Shown here: positions 9,895 to 64,000 of the stretch, one piece after another | Position numbering within the stretch: position 1 is the first letter of the stretch | Layout of the letters: every line of letters starts with the position of its first letter | Origin: Fodinicola acaciae | Lineage (GTDB): Bacteria > Actinomycetota > Actinomycetes > Mycobacteriales > HKI-0501 | Direction of reading: 5' to 3' | Assembly (NCBI RefSeq): GCF_010993745.1 | Contig: NZ_WOTN01000004.1 | Coordinates: forward strand, 248,001 to 312,000 | Length of the DNA stretch: 64,000 nt | The notes under the pieces: generated by a model | Told to the model about the DNA's origin: nothing | The model's input: the letters and a program-made list of their open reading frames with translations, nothing else | Databases searched by the model: none | Position numbers and translations under genes: made by a program

Positions 9895-10668
9895 ATGACG
9901 ACGCGACCCACGGCGCTGGTCACCGGCGCCACGGCCGGCATCGGCGCGGCCTTCGCGAAAGCACTGGCGGCCGGTGGCTATGACCTCGTGCTGGTGGCAC
10001 GTGACCGCGAGCGGCTGGAGAAGGCCGCCACCGACCTCGGCGCGACCCACTCGGTGCTGGTGGCCGACCTGGCCACCGACGACGGCTGCGCGCTGGTCGA
10101 GCAGCGACTGTCCGATGTGGACAACCCGGTGGACCTGCTGGTCAACAACGCCGGCATCGGCCTGCGCGGCGCCTTCCGGTCCAACGGCCTGGAGGCGGAG
10201 CTGCGCCAGCTCGATCTCAACGTGCGTGCGGTGCTGCGGCTGACCCACGCGGCGCTCGGCCCGATGGTGGAGCGGCGCCGCGGCGCGATCGTCAACGTGT
10301 CGTCGGTCGCCGGTTTCGCCACGACGGCGCCAGGATCCACTTATGGCGCCACGAAATCCTGGGTGACCGCATTCAGCGAGTCGGTGCACCTGTCGGTCCG
10401 GCTCAAAGGCGTACGCGTGATGGCGTTGTGCCCCGGCTACGTACGCACCGAGTTTCACGAGCGCGCAGGCATCGACGTCGGCGACCGCGGCGGTCCGATG
10501 TGGCTCGACGCCGACCGGCTGGTCGCCACCGCGCTCGCCGACCTGCGCCGCGGCCGTACGGTCAGCGTGCCGAGCGTGCAGTACAAGGCGATCGTCGGCC
10601 TGCTCCGGCACGCACCTCGGTCGCTGCTCAACGCCGTACTCACACGCTCGTCACGTGCTCGCGACTAG
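9895..10668 (+). CDS. Short-chain dehydrogenase/reductase
   Basis: A 257-residue classical SDR. The Rossmann motif is TGATAGIGAAFAKAL (residues 10-24), followed by LLVNNAGIG and the catalytic Ser (VSSVAG) and Tyr-Lys (YGATKSW). The PGYVRTEFH segment after the active site is typical of the family. The long open frame upstream is not coding; the ATG at 9895 starts a normal SDR. It is divergent from the DoxX-like gene, with 67 bp between. The likely cofactor is NADP(H), because no acidic residue follows the dinucleotide motif at the NAD-specific position, but the substrate is unknown. Confidence 0.92.
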   Translation: MTTRPTALVTGATAGIGAAFAKALAAGGYDLVLVARDRERLEKAATDLGATHSVLVADLATDDGCALVEQRLSDVDNPVDLLVNNAGIGLRGAFRSNGLEAELRQLDLNVRAVLRLTHAALGPMVERRRGAIVNVSSVAGFATTAPGSTYGATKSWVTAFSESVHLSVRLKGVRVMALCPGYVRTEFHERAGIDVGDRGGPMWLDADRLVATALADLRRGRTVSVPSVQYKAIVGLLRHAPRSLLNAVLTRSSRARD

Positions 10669-58880: not shown

Positions 58881-59810
58881 ATGATGGCGGACATGACCAG
58901 TCCAACCGCGCGTGCGCTGCTGGCGCTGGAGGCGATCCAGGACAGCCCTGGCATCACGGCGCAGCGGCTCGGCGACCGCCTCGGCGTCACCGAACGCGCC
59001 GCGCGCCGTTACGTCGCGATCCTGCGTGAGGCCGACCTGCCGATCGAGTCGTTGACGGGTCCGCTCGGCGGCTATCGCGTCGGCCGCAGCCTGCGCCTGC
59101 CACCGCTGATGTTCACCGCCGCCGAGGCGATGGGGATGGTGATGGCCGTCCTGGAAGGCCACCGCGACGCCGCCGACCCGTCCGACGTGGTCGGCCGTGC
59201 GCTGGCCAAGATCATCCGCGTACTGCCAACGCGGATCGCTGAGCCGGTGCGCGCTTTCCGCGAGATCACACCGCCGGTCGGCGGCGACGTACGACCGGAT
59301 GCCGCGACAGTGGCGCGGCTCGTCGAGGCCTGCGACACGGCTCGGCGACTGCGTCTGGCCTACTGGACGGGGACGATGGACGTCGATCCGTGGGCCGTGG
59401 TGTTGCGGCACAGCCGCTGGTATTTACTTTGCTGGTCGCACAAAAAGCAGGCGCGGCGGGTGTTGCGTGTCGACCGGATCTCCTCTGTAGAGACGCTGGC
59501 CGATTCCTTCACGCCGCCGGCCGGACTCGACGCGTTGCGCACCTTGGAGGATCACCTGTCCCAAGGCTGGACGCACGCTGTGGACGTCGTCCTCGACGCG
59601 CCGATCGCCGACGCCACCCGCTGGCTGTCCCGCAGCCTCGGCCGCGTCGAGGCGATTTCCGAGCGACAGAGCCGATTGGTGGCCACCACCGACAATCCGG
59701 AGTGGTACGCACGGCAACTCGCCGCGCTGCCCCTGTCCTTTCAGGTGATTGGATCGGCGGAGCTCAAGGCGGCGGTGGTCGCACTAGGGGAGCGGCTGAT
59801 CGGGTCGTGA
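58881..59810 (+). CDS. WYL-domain transcriptional regulator
   Basis: About 309 residues: HTH_11 helix-turn-helix (ALLALEAIQDSPGITAQRLGDRLGVTERAARRYVAILREADLPI), a WYL domain with HSRWYLLCWSHKKQARRVLRVDRIS, and a WCX C-terminus. ATGs at 58881, 58884 and 58893 are all possible starts. Divergent from the DinB operon by 41 bp, so it probably regulates DinB/GNAT or itself. It overlaps the convergent P-loop gene by 27 bp. Confidence 0.9.
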   Translation: MMADMTSPTARALLALEAIQDSPGITAQRLGDRLGVTERAARRYVAILREADLPIESLTGPLGGYRVGRSLRLPPLMFTAAEAMGMVMAVLEGHRDAADPSDVVGRALAKIIRVLPTRIAEPVRAFREITPPVGGDVRPDAATVARLVEACDTARRLRLAYWTGTMDVDPWAVVLRHSRWYLLCWSHKKQARRVLRVDRISSVETLADSFTPPAGLDALRTLEDHLSQGWTHAVDVVLDAPIADATRWLSRSLGRVEAISERQSRLVATTDNPEWYARQLAALPLSFQVIGSAELKAAVVALGERLIGS

Positions 59811-60344
59811 TTTTCGCGGCAGGTGGCCGGCCGCGGCCAGAATCGCCGCGGCGACGTCCTCCGGCGTACCAGCACTGCTGATGATCGTCGCGCCGAAACG
59901 TCGATAGCTTGCCTCGGCCTCGGCATTGCGTTGGAGCGCCGCGACCAACTCCTCCGGATGCTTGCCGAAGGCATTCGTCGTACGCGTCAGAAGGCGGTCT
60001 CGGAGGGTCGTGTTGTCGACCACCAGGCAGACGACGAGGTCGAACAGATCCCACACCTCGTTCTCGTTTTCCACCGTTCCAAAGAGAAACGCGCGGTCGC
60101 CAGACGTACTCTCCGCCAGCGCCTCAATCTTCGCGCGGCTGATCCGCCATCCAAAGCGATCAAGCCAGCCGGCCGGCGCCGGATAGGGCGGATCGACAAC
60201 GACCTGCCCGGTCTTGCGGTCGACCCAGTGGTTGTAGCCATCCCAGTCGGCATCGACCGCCTGCTCGCCACGGCTCTTCAACAACGTACAAACCGTCGAC
60301 TTGCCGACGCCTGAACTGCCCGTCACCCACACCAACCCCACCAC
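59784..60344 (-). CDS. P-loop nucleoside/small-molecule kinase-like ATPase
   Basis: About 186 residues with Walker A GSSGVGKSTV (about 8-17) near the N-terminus, ADWDGYNHWVDRKTG, FLFGTVENENEVWDLFDLVVCLVVD and RTTNAFGKHPEEL, as in adenylate/shikimate-kinase-like AAA proteins (AAA_18 group). The reading frame continues without a stop upstream into the truncated cutA, but the intervening sequence (60345-60506) looks unlike either gene. GTG at 60344, GTG 60341 or TTG 60335 are likely starts. The substrate is unknown. Confidence 0.78.
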   Translation of the reverse strand: MVGLVWVTGSSGVGKSTVCTLLKSRGEQAVDADWDGYNHWVDRKTGQVVVDPPYPAPAGWLDRFGWRISRAKIEALAESTSGDRAFLFGTVENENEVWDLFDLVVCLVVDNTTLRDRLLTRTTNAFGKHPEELVAALQRNAEAEASYRRFGATIISSAGTPEDVAAAILAAAGHLPRKSRPDQPLP

Positions 60345-60505
60345 CGCAGCATCGCACAACCACCGGTTGGCTTCGTTGCGATGACGCCAGGGGCATGGAC
60401 GATCCGGCGTCGCCATGGGCCGTGCGCGAACTCGACGTTTTGTGCCGCGACACGCCGCGAACCCTGCCGACAACGTCAAGTTCGCGGAGCCGCAACCGCT
60501 TCTCG

Positions 60506-60556
60506 CGTACGGATGCTGGTCGTTGACGCGCTGCACGATCTCGTCAACCAGGCTCA
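60506..60556. repeat. 51-bp direct repeat within cutA, left copy
   Basis: Matches 63950-64000 at 47 of 51 bases in the same orientation, with a 26-bp perfect core (TGCTGGTCGTTGACGCGCTG and beyond). The coding meaning (SLVDEIVQRVNDQHPY) is kept. It forms the left boundary of the accessory segment. Confidence 0.85.
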
Positions 60557-60749
60557 TTTTGGTGTGACATATGAGCATCGCTTCGGGCTTGTCGTTGATC
60601 TGGTTGTCCCAGCGGTAAACGGCGCGGATCGGCGCGATGTTGTGTGCGCCGGCCGCCAGGCGGTCAGAGACCAGCTGGCGGGAGAATTCCATCAACCAGT
60701 CCGCATCTGGCGCGGTGATCGTGACACGGCAGACTGGCTCGTCACTCAT
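60507..60749 (-). pseudogene. cutA: cutA, 5' portion (truncated copy)
   Basis: The first 81 codons encode a clear CutA1 N-terminus: MSDEPVCRVTITAPDADWLM, LVSDRLAAGAHNIAPIRAVYRWD, ICHTKMSLVDEIVQRVNDQHPY. CutA1 is a trimeric divalent-cation-tolerance protein of about 105 residues, and the final part (PCVIA...YLQWI) is missing. After Tyr-81 the frame runs on through unrelated sequence into the P-loop gene. The break coincides with the 51-bp repeat, and the missing 3' part is seen at 63870-64000. Most likely a truncated, non-functional copy. Confidence 0.85.
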
Positions 60750-60891
60750 CGTATTCCGTTTTCAGCTGCTCGGTGATCTCGGCTTCCTCAGCCGTGCGCG
60801 CCATGCCAAACCATATTAGCTCAGCCTGCTGGCGGAACTGGACTCCTTGAAGCGCGATGCGCTCCTCACCGTTACGGAAGGTCTGCCACAC
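60742..60891 (-). CDS. Small ORF directly upstream of truncated cutA
   Basis: About 49 codons from GTG 60891 to a TGA that overlaps the cutA ATG region by 8 bp. The peptide is Gln/Glu/Ala-rich with WFGMARTAEEAEITEQLKTEYDE at its end. The tight coupling with cutA favours translation; a shorter start at the internal ATG (60804) is possible. It lies between the tRNA terminator and cutA. Not recognised. Confidence 0.35.
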   Translation of the reverse strand: MWQTFRNGEERIALQGVQFRQQAELIWFGMARTAEEAEITEQLKTEYDE

Positions 60892-60915
60892 GACCACCAG
60901 TCGCCGGACAGCGCG

Positions 60916-60948
60916 AACGCCTGGCCTCCGAGCGGAGGGCCAGGCGTT
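60916..60948 (-). terminator. Stem-loop terminator of the tRNA-Ser locus
   Basis: AACGCCTGGCC-TCCG pairs with CGGA-GGGCCAGGCGTT around a 2-nt turn; one extra base bulges. It begins 12 bp beyond the CCA end of the tRNA fragment on the minus strand and is thus probably the original terminator of that tRNA gene. The plus-strand reading ends in TTTT. Confidence 0.75.
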
Positions 60949-60960
60949 TTGGCTGGTCAG

Positions 60961-61019
60961 TGGCGGTGGTGGTGGGATTTGAACCCACGGAGGGCGTGAA
61001 CCCTCACACGCTTTCGAGG
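60961..61019 (-). tRNA. tRNA-Ser(CGA), 3' half only; attachment-site remnant
   Basis: Reading the minus strand, the sequence begins at the anticodon loop CTCGAAA (anticodon CGA), continues through a long serine-type variable arm (GAGGGTTCACGCCCTC), a perfect T-arm (GTGGG TTCAAAT CCCAC), the acceptor strand CACCACC, G and encoded CCA. The expected 5' half (GGTGGTG... and a D-arm) is absent upstream: the DNA there cannot pair with the acceptor or anticodon stems. Such 3' halves are what tyrosine integrases leave at one end of an element inserted in a tRNA gene. Confidence 0.82.
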
Positions 61020-61308
61020 TCTGCGACCACGCGTCCAGCGACAACCGGCACTGTCCATAAGCTGCGCAAACACGTTGCGCTGAACGTCTGCGGACGGCTC
61101 CGTACAACCCTGAATGAGACGAAAACTGAGACGATAGCCGAACTGCCGGTACTGGAATCTCACCTGCGGTGCAGCGTCGGTCAGATTGCCATACTCCGCG
61201 CCGCATGAGTACCAGCGACAAGCAAGGCGAGAGCATCTGATTCCATACCGTACCTATGGAATCAGACGCTCTCGCCTTACACAGTTGAACAATTGCTAAT
61301 GTAATTGC
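61020..61308. other. Non-coding stretch next to the tRNA fragment
   Basis: No gene is supported. The base composition drops in GC compared with the core chromosome. Only the hairpin at 61224-61278 stands out. If the tRNA scar is an att site, this is the outer end of the inserted element. Confidence 0.6.
61224..61278 (-). terminator. 24-bp stem-loop (one mismatch), terminator of the 61309 gene
   Basis: Arms 61224-61247 and 61255-61278 pair at 23 of 24 positions around a 7-nt loop. It starts 30 bp beyond the stop of the small membrane-protein gene on the minus strand, so it probably ends that transcript. There is no strong T-tract. Confidence 0.72.
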
Positions 61309-61698
61309 TTAAGCGGAGTGGCGTCCGAAGTAGAAGCCCACCACGAGTCCGACCGCCGGCAATATCGGCACGACGAAAACGTCAAGCAATTTGCCGAGTT
61401 CGTCAATACCTATGGCGTGAAAAGCCAACGCCAGTAGCGCCGCGAGGCCCCAGGCACCGAGGTACCCAATCAGCAAACGTACTAGCCGACCCCGCGTCCG
61501 TTCTCGAAGCTCACGCTCCGACGGTTGCAGCAGTCCTGGAGTCATGGGTTCATCGGCCGAAAGCTTCCCGCCGACATCAGTTGCCGTTTTCTCGCTGGAA
61601 TCAGAGCCGGAAGCAGACTCATCTGACCCAACGCGAAGAATGATCTCGTCCGGGAGACAGAGCCCTTCTTCCATCTCCTCGTCTGAATGCAGTGACAT
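61309..61698 (-). CDS. Small acidic protein with two membrane helices, unrecognised
   Basis: A 129-residue protein. Residues 1-60 are acidic and Ser-rich (MSLHSDEEMEEG...). A basic helix ELRERTRGRLVRLLIGYLGAWGLAALLALAFHAIG leads into the first membrane segment (about 74-94), and VFVVPILPAVGLVVGFYFGRHSA forms the second. Cytoplasmic acidic domain plus a two-helix anchor resembles small membrane partners in mobile elements, but I recognise no family. Codon use is less GC-rich than in the core genes, consistent with transfer. Confidence 0.68.
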   Translation of the reverse strand: MSLHSDEEMEEGLCLPDEIILRVGSDESASGSDSSEKTATDVGGKLSADEPMTPGLLQPSERELRERTRGRLVRLLIGYLGAWGLAALLALAFHAIGIDELGKLLDVFVVPILPAVGLVVGFYFGRHSA

Positions 61699-62238
61699 TT
61701 CGCACTCGCTTTGTCCGATGACAAATCAATCAACAAACCAAAATGTGCTAGGGATATCTAAGGCGGTGCGCGCTGTATATTCAAGTGGACCTCCCTTTAG
61801 CGACTACGACTACGAGGGCTTGAAATAACTCCCATAAGGATGTTGCCTCCTCAGAGGTCTAACAACTCACTCCTGTACGGTTGCGTCTCTCCGTGGGTTA
61901 ACTAATCAATGTCGACCGGAGAAGCTCAATCGACACCGACCTTCTTTCGGTGTAGCCACACTCCCCCGCGTGGTCAGTGCGGCCTGGGATAGACCAGACG
62001 ATGTGGAACCCAAGCCTCGTTGCCATACCTCGCCTGAACCAAAATCGACTGGTAACCGGCGACGCAATATTCGTCATACGGGATTACCAATCCGATCGGC
62101 GGACCGATCGGAAAGCCAAAAGCCACTACACAATTCACCTCCTTCATTACAAGATTTGAGCAGCACGAAATGAAGGGCGATCTCTGACATTCAGAACGAT
62201 TTGGTTATCAAAGAACGTTAGTTAGCCAGTCGGCAAAC
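61699..62238. other. AT-richer 540-bp stretch without a convincing gene
   Basis: Only short overlapping open frames with no ribosome sites or family resemblance are present. GC is clearly below the rest of the window. It must contain the promoter of the 61309 gene on the minus strand. Decayed coding sequence or a structured RNA cannot be excluded. Confidence 0.6.
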
Positions 62239-62469
62239 TTAAAGAGGAAAGATTAATTCCTTTAGAGTTTTGTCTGGCTCCTCGATTAGTATTCTCGCTC
62301 CACGCTGCGCGGCATCATCGATATATTTCTGAGTCGAGATGGCCCGGCGCAACGCCTCGGTCAGCGTTACCCCTCGGCGACTTGTGATCGTGCGTATCGC
62401 TTCGGCGGCCTCCGCAGACAGATTTACAGAAAGGCGGACCCCCTTGCCCTCCTGCCTATCATTATTCAT
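62239..62469 (-). CDS. Ribbon-helix-helix (Arc/CopG-type) DNA-binding protein
   Basis: A 76-residue protein from ATG 62469 (GAGGAG 6 nt upstream). GVRLSVNLSAEAAEAIRTITSRRGVTLTEALRRAISTQKYI is an RHH fold: beta strand RLSVNL, two helices. The tail ILIEEPDKTLKELIFPL is common in small RHH regulators of mobile elements and antitoxins. The frame is open up to 62622, and ATG 62592 has GGAGG at ideal spacing, giving a possible 117-residue form with a 41-residue extension. No toxin gene is recognised beside it. Confidence 0.78.
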   Translation of the reverse strand: MNNDRQEGKGVRLSVNLSAEAAEAIRTITSRRGVTLTEALRRAISTQKYIDDAAQRGARILIEEPDKTLKELIFPL

Positions 62470-62826
62470 TTGCTTCTCCTCAAGCAGCACCTGTCGGTGA
62501 TCCAGACGATCAGCCGGCGGCCCCCTGGCGGTGGCGTACCGCGCAGATCCGACCAACGCCTCAGCGAAGGTCGCCTCTTGACCACACACCATCATCACCT
62601 CCTCGACACACCTAAAGTACACCAGAAACCCGCATCATGCATGCGGCACGCCCTCTCGATACGCCGCCCCTTGCCGGCCAGCTCGACTGCTTGGACTGCA
62701 GGGCGCTAGGGGTTTCCACCCGCCGTGATTACCGGTGTCTTAATAGTCCTCTCCCCGGGACGTGTTCGTCCCATATGCTGGCGCCAGTCGCAGAGGGTGA
62801 TTGGGCGATCGAAAGGACAGCGATTT
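62470..62826. other. Intergenic/leader region between divergent small genes
   Basis: About 357 bp between the RHH gene and a small plus-strand gene. The part up to 62592 may be coding on the minus strand as an N-terminal extension of the RHH protein. The rest (62600-62826) should hold divergent promoters; no strong consensus is seen. Confidence 0.5.
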
Positions 62827-63081
62827 ATGAGCATTCGGGAGGCACTTCTTTATGCTCGCCGGAGGGAGCACGACCACGAAGCGGGCAAGATCTACATCGT
62901 TCCCGATGGCTTGCGGCTGGATGACGAGATCGAAGTCAAGCATCTGATTTCGATGTGCAAGTTCTGCGCGCAGCATCTGCATGCACTCGGCCTGTACGTC
63001 GATGGCGAGCACAAGAGCACGACTAAGTGGATATCCAACGGCGAGGCAGCAAGGGCCGGTTGGAAAGCGCGCAACTCGTAG
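62827..63081 (+). CDS. Small unrecognised protein of the accessory segment
   Basis: An 84-residue protein from ATG 62827, with GAAAGGA about 10 nt upstream. Key stretches are SIREALLYARRREHDHEAGK, IYIVPDGLRLDDEIEVKHL and MCKFCAQHLHALGLYVDGEHKS. The C-x-x-C with nearby His residues could bind a metal. Length, charge and context are those of small cargo genes in actinobacterial integrative elements. No family recognised. Confidence 0.65.
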   Translation: MSIREALLYARRREHDHEAGKIYIVPDGLRLDDEIEVKHLISMCKFCAQHLHALGLYVDGEHKSTTKWISNGEAARAGWKARNS

Positions 63082-63316
63082 ACTGGGCCGCCGCTAGACC
63101 GCCGTCGAATTTTCCAGCAGTGACAAAGTAAAGCTGGCCGGATGGGTCCGGTTGCAGGCTTCTACCGCCTGGGTGAGGGAGTGCGGTGGAGCACATATCT
63201 CCTGGGCTCGTCCGGCCTTTCATCGGCTTCAGTCCGGCCATCTGCGGGTTCCCCGATCCCCATCGTCACCGCAGATAGCTGGGCTGGGGCCTCACTTTCT
63301 CTTGGAGGTCTCCGGC

Positions 63317-63583
63317 GTGGTCGTCGTACGCGTTGACTCGGTGCTGGCGCAGACTGCGCGAGAGCATGCCCGTGAGCATCAGCCCGTTGCCCGACGCGAT
63401 GGCGCCTGGTGCCGATCTTGCGATGATTCGTGGCCGTGCGACGTGCGGGCTAATGCCGACGCAGTATTGCGCGCTGCGGGAGTCGATCCCCGATCGCTGG
63501 ATAATCGCCGGTCCCGACCATCTCCCCGTGGTACGGACCGCGTCGGCACGGGCCACAAGACGTATGTGGTGGTGGGTCGGTGA
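63317..63583 (+). CDS. Small Cys-rich protein with WCRSCDDSWPC motif
   Basis: An 88-residue protein from GTG 63317 (GGAGG 8 nt upstream). The segment HQPVARRDGAWCRSCDDSWPCDVRANADAVL has W-C-x2-C and W-P-C elements, a pattern I recall from many uncharacterised actinobacterial proteins; it could be a small zinc-binding module. The C-terminus is basic (RRSRPSPRGTDR). Its stop overlaps the next start (GTGA). Confidence 0.68.
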   Translation: MVVVRVDSVLAQTAREHAREHQPVARRDGAWCRSCDDSWPCDVRANADAVLRAAGVDPRSLDNRRSRPSPRGTDRVGTGHKTYVVVGR

Positions 63584-63810
63584 TCGAGGTCAGGCAGGTG
63601 CTATCGCTGCGCCGGCAGGTCGTACAGGCGCGGCTTGATGCCACGCGGGAGCTGCACACTGCCCGGATCAGTGCCGATCAGCGGCGGGTTGATCATCTAG
63701 CGGGCAAGGCGCTGGCTATGCAGATGATCGTTGACATGATCGATATCGAGTTTCAGCTAAACGTCGACGAGGAAGAATATCCAGCGCTCGGCCGGCATCG
63801 CCGCGCCTGA
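63580..63810 (+). CDS. Small helical protein coupled to the Cys-rich protein
   Basis: A 76-residue protein, GTG start overlapping the previous stop. It is largely alpha-helical and charged (VLSLRRQVVQARLDATRELHTARISADQRRVDHLAG), then QMIVDMIDIEFQLNVDEEEYPAL. A perfect terminator hairpin follows 11 bp after the stop. Not recognised; probably a partner of the upstream protein because translation is coupled. Confidence 0.65.
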   Translation: MIEVRQVLSLRRQVVQARLDATRELHTARISADQRRVDHLAGKALAMQMIVDMIDIEFQLNVDEEEYPALGRHRRA

Positions 63811-63821
63811 TCTCATTAACG

Positions 63822-63864
63822 AAATGCCCCGCCTCCGGCCATCGTGGCCGGAGGCGGGGCATTT
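63822..63864. terminator. 20-bp perfect bidirectional terminator
   Basis: Arms 63822-63841 and 63845-63864 pair perfectly around TCG, with TTTTGCGTTT following on the plus strand and an A/T flank on the other. It separates the plus-strand small genes from the convergent cutA 3' end, terminating both. Confidence 0.92.
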
Positions 63865-63869
63865 TGCGT

Positions 63870-64000
63870 TTACCGTGTCTCGTCGCGAATCCACTGGAGG
63901 TACGGCGGATTGCCCGCGTCGATGACGTGCGCGATGACGCACGGGACTACGTATGGGTGCTGGTCGTTGACGCGCTGCACGATTTCGTCAACGAGGCTCA
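63870..64000 (-). CDS. cutA: cutA, 3' portion (second copy; 5' end beyond right edge)
   Basis: Reading the minus strand from the edge gives SLVDEIVQRVNDQHPYVVPC then VIAHVIDAGNPPYLQWIRDE, T, R and stop: the normal CutA1 C-terminus that the left copy lacks. CutA1 is a trimer implicated in divalent-cation tolerance. The first 51 bases of the shown part (63950-64000) are the direct repeat shared with 60506-60556. Whether the gene is complete beyond the edge cannot be seen. Confidence 0.85.
   Translation of the reverse strand, partial: SLVDEIVQRVNDQHPYVVPCVIAHVIDAGNPPYLQWIRDETR
63950..64000. repeat. 51-bp direct repeat within cutA, right copy
   Basis: Same orientation as the left copy at 60506-60556. 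Four differences in 51 bases; the one that can be read as a codon change in the left copy is minor, and most are third-position. The repeat may extend beyond the window edge. Confidence 0.85.

What the first reader, a model, noticed from the sequence alone, without database searches (positions are those of the whole stretch)
60961..61019. tRNA-Ser(CGA) 3' half as an integrase attachment scar
The sequence from the anticodon loop to the encoded CCA is a perfect serine tRNA 3' half, with its probable terminator intact downstream, but the 5' half is replaced. Tyrosine integrases typically use exactly this portion as attB. The inserted element would extend to higher coordinates, past the window edge, where an intact tRNA-Ser and an integrase would be expected.
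Basis: partly seen in the sequence, partly recalled or inferred. Interest (0 to 1): 0.68.

Follow-up and report, generated by a model that had tools for sequence, protein, structure and literature searches.

The report
Scar of a mobile DNA element
The broken serine tRNA piece is the leftover end of a gene that a 13-kb actinobacterial mobile element split and repaired when it inserted, an ordinary kind of event, but comparing relatives shows an unusually regular layout of the DNA that such elements seem to use to choose their target.

Summary
Window 60961-61019 (minus strand) is the 3' half of tRNA-Ser(CGA), from the anticodon loop to CCA. The only other good copy in the genome lies 12,885 bp to the right, as the 3' half of the intact tRNA-Ser(CGA) (exact repeat 68 bp). 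Integrase and excisionase genes sit beside the intact tRNA. [quoted passage not shown] The inferred empty site aligns unbroken, up to the terminator, with a congener's locus. So the feature is ordinary in kind.

Two things go further. Left of the scar lies a decayed copy of the element's own XRE-CutA pair, perhaps an older visitor. And the attachment site is strikingly regular. TGAGAC-N6-TGAGAC occurs four times in 8.86 Mb: at the ends of this element and of a sister in tRNA-Ser(GGA). At 21 of 25 scars examined (own two included) the scar-side copy starts 96-98 nt from the anticodon loop. Serine anticodons CGA and GGA swap between integrases as close as 89.5%. I infer fixed arms plus a swappable anticodon-loop core. 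Nothing was tested at the bench.

The parts
60952..61019 (-). Exact 68-bp repeat shared with the intact tRNA-Ser(CGA) locus; the scar end of the element (attachment core)
60961..61019 (-). tRNA-Ser(CGA) 3' half, displaced; first base of the 7-nt anticodon loop at 61018
60916..60948 (-). Terminator-like hairpin of the original host tRNA gene, now behind the scar
   Evidence: -32.8 kcal/mol, z -5.3; G001 keeps a similar hairpin at the same place
61019..64000 (.). Left end of the 12.9-kb element (inside the window); it continues to about position 73,846 in window numbering (G000:C4:321,846), where the intact tRNA begins
61115..61132 (+). Putative integrase arm site TGAGACGAAAACTGAGAC on the scar side; the identical 18-mer lies at the integrase end (G000:C4:321770-321787)
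61309..61698 (-). 129-aa ORF inside the element, no family match above its cut-off
62239..62622 (-). 127-aa ORF with a borderline ribbon-helix-helix match (PF01402, 20.3 bits, cut-off 20.5)
62725..63081 (+). 118-aa ORF, no family match
60506..60911 (-). Decayed copy of the element's XRE-regulator and CutA gene pair, on the host side of the scar; both genes truncated and 225 bp missing inside
   Evidence: identity 278 of 312 and 88 of 98 columns
59784..60749 (-). ORF in which the truncated CutA (residues 9-82) runs on into a P-loop kinase-like protein (AAA_18)

Best explanation
The segment is the displaced 3' half of the tRNA-Ser(CGA) gene at the far end of an integrated AICE of 12.9 kb. The element's tyrosine integrase recombined the element's attP with the tRNA gene at the 7-nt anticodon loop. 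The element brought its own copy of the 3' half plus a terminator, so the tRNA next to the integrase is whole again and the host's original 3' half was pushed 12.9 kb away (the layout is shown by sequence). Inferred: integrase binds two TGAGAC-N6-TGAGAC arm sites, one on each side of the core, and holds the core on the anticodon stem. Because overlap DNA must match, the anticodon-loop sequence of attP sets which serine tRNA is used, and relatives change target by changing the core while keeping the arms.
For: Second copy and intact tRNA. Integrase (PF00589, PF14659), excisionase (TIGR01764), Prim-Pol (PF09250), DUF3631 (PF12307) and SSB; FtsK/SpoIIIE-like transfer protein (phrog_1358, 6.6e-18) with a P-loop-like AQPRKGKT. 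The inferred empty site aligns over 305 columns at 82% (7 gap columns) to congener G001, which shows one full-length match to this tRNA, no scar and no integrase relative at E <= 1e-60. Conserved DNA lies on both sides in G001. The motif occurs 4 times in 8.86 Mb, at both ends of both elements; reversed control 0. Of 48 integrase loci with an adjacent tRNA, 42 have the motif; 24 of 25 scars (own two included) carry a 7-nt loop identical to the restored tRNA, and 21 of 25 have the motif 96-98 nt away. Circular pCM32 shows the same attP: motif, tRNA-Ser(GGA) 3' half, motif.
Against: No excision, circular form or transfer was shown. Arm binding is inferred from position and conservation only. The transfer protein has no Pfam or NCBIfam match. 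G001 is only 74% complete, and beyond its terminator it does not align with the window until about 57.7 kb, so some other change there cannot be excluded; it also has an arm-like GTCTCAGTTTTTGGTCTCA (N7 spacing) behind its terminator, so its site may be a healed, once-used one. Six of 48 tRNA-adjacent integrases lack the motif, three of them at serine tRNAs; 14 of 62 integrase loci have no such tRNA; 5 of 29 long loci gave no scar by the 33-nt probe.
Confidence: 0.93

Rival explanations
1. Stacked insertions: the scar is really the junction between two successive elements. An older related element sat on the left and was largely lost; the present one inserted into the tRNA that the older one had restored.
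For: Decayed XRE-CutA copy directly left of the terminator. XRE and CutA homologues also lie inside relatives' elements in L086 and L087. Another locus shows stacking: L052 has two scars 1,156 bp apart, each with the motif at +97.
Against: No third copy of the tRNA 3' half further left, no arm motif in window 1-60000, and the integrase search of the own genome lists no hit in the left flank. A captured or duplicated fragment is also possible.
Confidence: 0.5
2. The element is a prophage or phage satellite that uses the same kind of integrase.
For: Integrase matches phrog_1 (1.1e-65); 51 phage records encode relatives at E <= 1e-40, all under 60% identity, the best listed 45.9% (10 of 51 listed).
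Against: No structural phage gene matched among the proteins scanned; Prim-Pol plus DUF3631 plus FtsK-like plus Xis plus Int, in the order transfer-replication-integration, is the AICE plan described in PMC3218068. Not every ORF was scanned.
Confidence: 0.03
3. The fragment is a chance duplicate or an assembly artefact, unrelated to integration.
For: None found.
Against: 68-bp exact repeat in direct orientation bounding an integrase element, matching arm motifs, an aligned empty site in a congener, and a second example in the same genome.
Confidence: 0.01

Closest known systems
AICEs with RepAM (DUF3631) and Prim-Pol (Ghinet et al. 2011, PMC3218068; passages and section 6 read)
   Same: att-tra-rep-int-att order, tyrosine integrase, Xis, Prim-Pol next to a DUF3631 protein, insertion at the 3' end of a tRNA gene; tandem AICEs and target differences between related integrases are described there
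pCM32 of Saccharopolyspora endophytica (NZ_KM260754)
   Same: Only plasmid hit for the integrase at E <= 1e-60 (50.9%); its circular attP has a tRNA-Ser(GGA) 3' half between two TGAGAC-N6-TGAGAC motifs
   Different: Different anticodon, different other genes; motif-to-loop distance on the integrase side 104 nt instead of 116
pSAM2 and pACPL arm-type sites (PMC3364876, passages read; Raynal et al. 2002, cited there, is not held)
   Same: Two short repeats flank the att identity segment of attP; that paper says that pSAM2 integrase binds them and needs them for efficient recombination
   Different: The word printed there is of the GTCACCCAGTTAGT(T/C)AC(C/T)CAG kind; here it is TGAGAC-N6-TGAGAC. 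Both have a 12-bp internal period, as I read them
Mycobacteriophages Ms6 and L5 (PMC1762012, passages read)
   Same: L5 is said to exchange strands in a 7-bp anticodon loop; changing the Ms6 attP core redirected it to other tRNA-Ala genes, the experimental precedent for a core-set target
   Different: Ms6 uses the T-loop; its switches were engineered, here they appear among natural relatives

Membership tests
AICE | Integrase with excisionase at one end, next to the att site | tested here: met
   Int L009:14518-15762 and Xis L009:14293-14514
AICE | FtsK/SpoIIIE-type transfer protein | tested here: met
   phrog_1358 at 6.6e-18 over residues 309-678; but no Pfam or NCBIfam match
AICE | Own replication module (RepSA, RepAM/DUF3631 or Prim-Pol type) | tested here: met
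   PF09250 at 8.7e-36 and PF12307 at 1e-67, adjacent genes
AICE | Direct att repeats, one of them completing a tRNA gene | tested here: met
   68-bp repeat, intact tRNA-Ser(CGA)
AICE | Excision, replication and conjugal transfer | not testable with these tools
   needs living cells
Anticodon-loop (class I, A-site) tyrosine integrases | Identity block starts at the 7-nt anticodon loop | tested here: met
   Own repeat starts 1 nt before the loop; 24 of 25 scars examined, own two included, keep the 7-nt loop unchanged. The point of strand exchange itself was not tested
pSAM2-like arm-type sites | Paired repeats flanking the attP core | tested here: met
   Identical 18-mers on both sides
pSAM2-like arm-type sites | Same recognition word as pSAM2/pACPL | tested here: not met
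   TGAGAC-N6-TGAGAC against the GTCACCCAG-type word printed in PMC3364876
pSAM2-like arm-type sites | Integrase binds the repeats | not testable with these tools
   A model of the L011 integrase (about 70% identical) has three strands and a helix at the N-terminus and its best match is lambda Int, but confidence is modest (pLDDT 68.7, pTM 0.44)
pSE211 integrase subfamily | Integrase clusters with pSE211 in a tree | not tested
   pSE211 sequence was not fetched; the subfamily is named in PMC3218068

The most novel reading that the evidence does not exclude
A whole actinobacterial integrase family works as a fixed-arm, swappable-core machine. TGAGAC-N6-TGAGAC arms, with the scar-side one held at 96-98 nt from the anticodon loop and the other often containing the integrase stop codon, stay constant across elements in Ser, Thr, Phe and Pro tRNA genes. 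The 7-nt anticodon loop alone decides between serine tRNAs that share an anticodon stem, so elements hop between isoacceptors without much change of the integrase. Motif plus position would then serve as a genome-wide marker of these elements and their relics.
Probability: 0.5. Interest if true: 0.55.

Novelty: new member of a known kind. Interest (0 to 1): 0.4.

Why it matters
The scar itself is textbook. What it led to is a testable rule for how one integrase family finds its target: constant arm sites at a nearly constant distance and a core whose anticodon loop names the tRNA. If true, attP sites and insertion targets of many actinobacterial elements can be read from sequence, relics can be found by an 18-bp pattern taken together with its position, and integration vectors could be steered between serine tRNA genes.

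Tried and rejected
Functional tRNA in the window: rejected (ARAGORN 0 in window; Rfam tRNA-Sec match below threshold). A third, older scar further left: none found (the other matches there are 33 bp or shorter). A plasmid home for the XRE-CutA pair: no DNA match in the plasmid collection. Printed description of the TGAGAC motif: one search found 35 papers holding tgagac, integrase and attP, of which I saw the 15 listed titles, none on this subject, and did not see the other 20; one search listed 5 of 899 papers that hold any one of four terms, none useful. Williams 2002, Raynal 2002 and the AICE review PMC2440964 are not held. So absence from print is not shown. Paper searches (no paper) gave the papers cited or nothing used; PMC4383910 and PMC12884075 were seen in passages only.

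Results that weaken the rule: the class-wide motif search matched 141 of 394 genomes, but its reversed control matched 66 genomes by my hand count of the table, so a 12-base pattern alone has chance hits in large sets. L100 has no recognisable scar-side arm (best 8 of 12 bases), L102 has 10 of 12 at the wrong distance, L051 has 11 of 12 at the right distance; L097 has the arm at 118. Scars in L086, L102 and L104 lie only 5.1, 4.7 and 8.6 kb from the tRNA, so those elements are shortened or the pairing is not the original one. The structure model is of the Micromonospora wenchangensis integrase L011, not of the element's own, and is of modest confidence.

Full report
What is there. The window is G000:C4:248001-312000 of an 8.86-Mb, four-contig genome. 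On the minus strand, 61019 to 60961 reads as the 3' half of a serine tRNA from the anticodon loop to CCA. ARAGORN finds no tRNA in the window. A search of the own genome with the surrounding 161 bases finds one other good copy, C4:321818-321904, same strand. There ARAGORN calls an intact tRNA-Ser(CGA) at C4:321846-321935. The exact repeat is 68 bp, start-to-start spacing 12,885 bp. A search with the whole tRNA and some flank finds only these two matches in the genome at E <= 1e-12, so this seems to be the only close copy of that tRNA gene, which the element had to restore.

The element. Between the copies (L009 = C4:306001-326000; window position = L009 position + 58000) lie, from the scar to the tRNA: low-G+C DNA with small ORFs, a CutA gene and an XRE regulator on the minus strand, then on the plus strand a 286-aa protein without a match, a 770-aa FtsK/SpoIIIE-like protein, a 123-aa ORF with only below-cut-off matches, SSB, Prim-Pol, a DUF3631 protein, Xis and a 414-aa tyrosine integrase whose gene points at the tRNA. 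This is the AICE plan att-tra-rep-int-att described by Ghinet et al. (PMC3218068, passages and section 6 read). The element also brings a terminator: the hairpin behind the restored tRNA (-37.5 kcal/mol) differs in sequence from the host hairpin left behind the scar (-32.8 kcal/mol).

Empty site. Only one other genome of the genus (G001) and one more of the family (G002) are held; each has a single match to this tRNA and no scar-like partial one (in G001 40 of 75 first-look candidates were scored). The host flanks joined at the loop align to G001 over 305 columns at 82% with 7 gap columns, from the HAD-hydrolase side through the tRNA to the terminator. Beyond the terminator the two genomes do not align until window 57677-56768. 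G001 and G002 have no integrase relative at E <= 1e-60 (G001 is 74% complete). G001 holds GTCTCAGTTTTTGGTCTCA just behind its terminator, which looks like a vestigial arm site with N7 spacing; its locus may have been used before.

Left of the scar. Window 60506-60911 is a decayed copy of the element's XRE-CutA pair: 278 of 312 and 88 of 98 alignment columns identical, both genes truncated, 225 bp missing inside. The truncated CutA now runs on into a kinase-like ORF. XRE and CutA homologues also occur in L086 and L087, and CutA in L051 (XRE in 2 of 42 and CutA in 3 of 42 regions). I read this as the remains of an older related element, at about even odds.

Attachment-site rule. The 18-mer TGAGACGAAAACTGAGAC lies once near each end of the element, outside the core. 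TGAGAC-N6-TGAGAC occurs exactly four times in the genome: at both ends of this element and both ends of a second AICE-like element, C4:451508-465666, whose integrase is 62% identical and which sits in tRNA-Ser(GGA) with its own 61-bp scar; the reversed control pattern occurs 0 times. I then used 62 integrase loci: the own two and those (list). Some come from related genomes, and L012 and L061 are identical. In 48 of 62 a tRNA lies within 400 bp behind the integrase on the other strand: Ser(GGA) 23, Ser(CGA) 14, Ser(TGA) 3, Ser(GCT) 1, Phe 2, Thr 2, Pro 1, Ala 1, Arg 1; 14 of 62 have none. Of the 48, 42 carry YGAGAC-N6-TGAGAC between 45 nt before the integrase stop and the tRNA, including both Phe, one Thr and the Pro case; in 20 of the 42 the integrase stop codon is the first TGA of the motif. 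The six without it are two Ser(GGA), one Ser(CGA), and the Ala, Arg and one Thr case; the last three lie in a distant part of the tree. Window 1-60000 and 54 kb of other sequence have no copy.

For 29 loci with long sequence, own two included, 24 show a scar by a 33-nt probe (25 scars, one locus having two). In 24 of 25 the 7-nt anticodon loop of scar and tRNA agree; one has a single change. In 21 of 25 the scar-side motif starts 96-98 nt from the first loop base; one lies at 118, three have no strict motif. Many of these genomes are related, so these are not 25 independent events. The circular plasmid pCM32, the only plasmid hit of the integrase at E <= 1e-60, shows the same order in one piece: motif, a hairpin seen by eye, tRNA-Ser(GGA) 3' half, and a motif 98 nt beyond the loop.

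Target switching. On a tree of 57 integrases, the CGA and GGA labels alone need 3 changes and all tRNA labels 12. The clearest case is L062 (GGA) and L065 (CGA), sisters with full support and 89.5% identical; both have scars with their own anticodon, although the L065 scar lies only 5.1 kb away and has one loop change outside the anticodon. L076 (GCT) is nested among GGA users (78% identical). CGA and GGA tRNAs here mostly share the anticodon stem (GCACGC / GCGTG) and differ in the loop. Ghinet et al. already noted related integrases with different tRNA targets, and Ms6 was redirected by changing its attP core (PMC1762012, passages read). So the principle is known. Natural isoacceptor switching with constant arms is the part I did not meet in print, in searches that saw only part of their hits and with the main att papers not held.

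Mechanism. Shown by sequence: the repeat, its edge at the anticodon loop, the restored tRNA, paired arm-like motifs, their spacing. Inferred: the integrase N-terminal domain binds the arms (a modest model of the L011 integrase has three strands and a helix there, and its best match is lambda Int), the catalytic domains bind the anticodon stem arms, and overlap identity in the loop locks the isoacceptor. Not shown: binding, excision, transfer.

Verdict. The element is a new member of a known kind; interest is moderate because of the regular attachment-site layout.

Noticed in passing
G000:C4:451508-465666 (L049): A second integrase element in the same genome, integrase 62% identical, inserted in tRNA-Ser(GGA) with a 61-bp scar and the same pair of arm motifs.
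   Followed up: partly
window 60506-60911: Decayed XRE-CutA copy beside the scar, 89-90% identical to the pair inside the element.
   Followed up: partly
window 59784-60749: Truncated CutA fused in frame to a P-loop kinase-like protein; may be a chance fusion after a deletion.
   Followed up: no
L052 (G013:C1:182001-202000), positions 388-474 and 1544-1630: Two stacked tRNA-Ser(GGA) scars 1,156 bp apart, each followed by an arm motif at +97: trace of successive insertions.
   Followed up: partly
L027 (G001) 10108-10126: Arm-like repeat with N7 spacing right behind the tRNA terminator of the otherwise empty site.
   Followed up: partly
window 63822-63864: Perfect 20-bp inverted repeat with a 3-nt loop inside the element (L009:5822-5864), next to the end of the CutA gene; likely a terminator.
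   Followed up: no
L009:14103-14241: 52-nt inverted repeat (87%) with a 35-nt loop; its left arm overlaps the end of the DUF3631 gene, its right arm lies before Xis. Possible replication or regulatory site.
   Followed up: no
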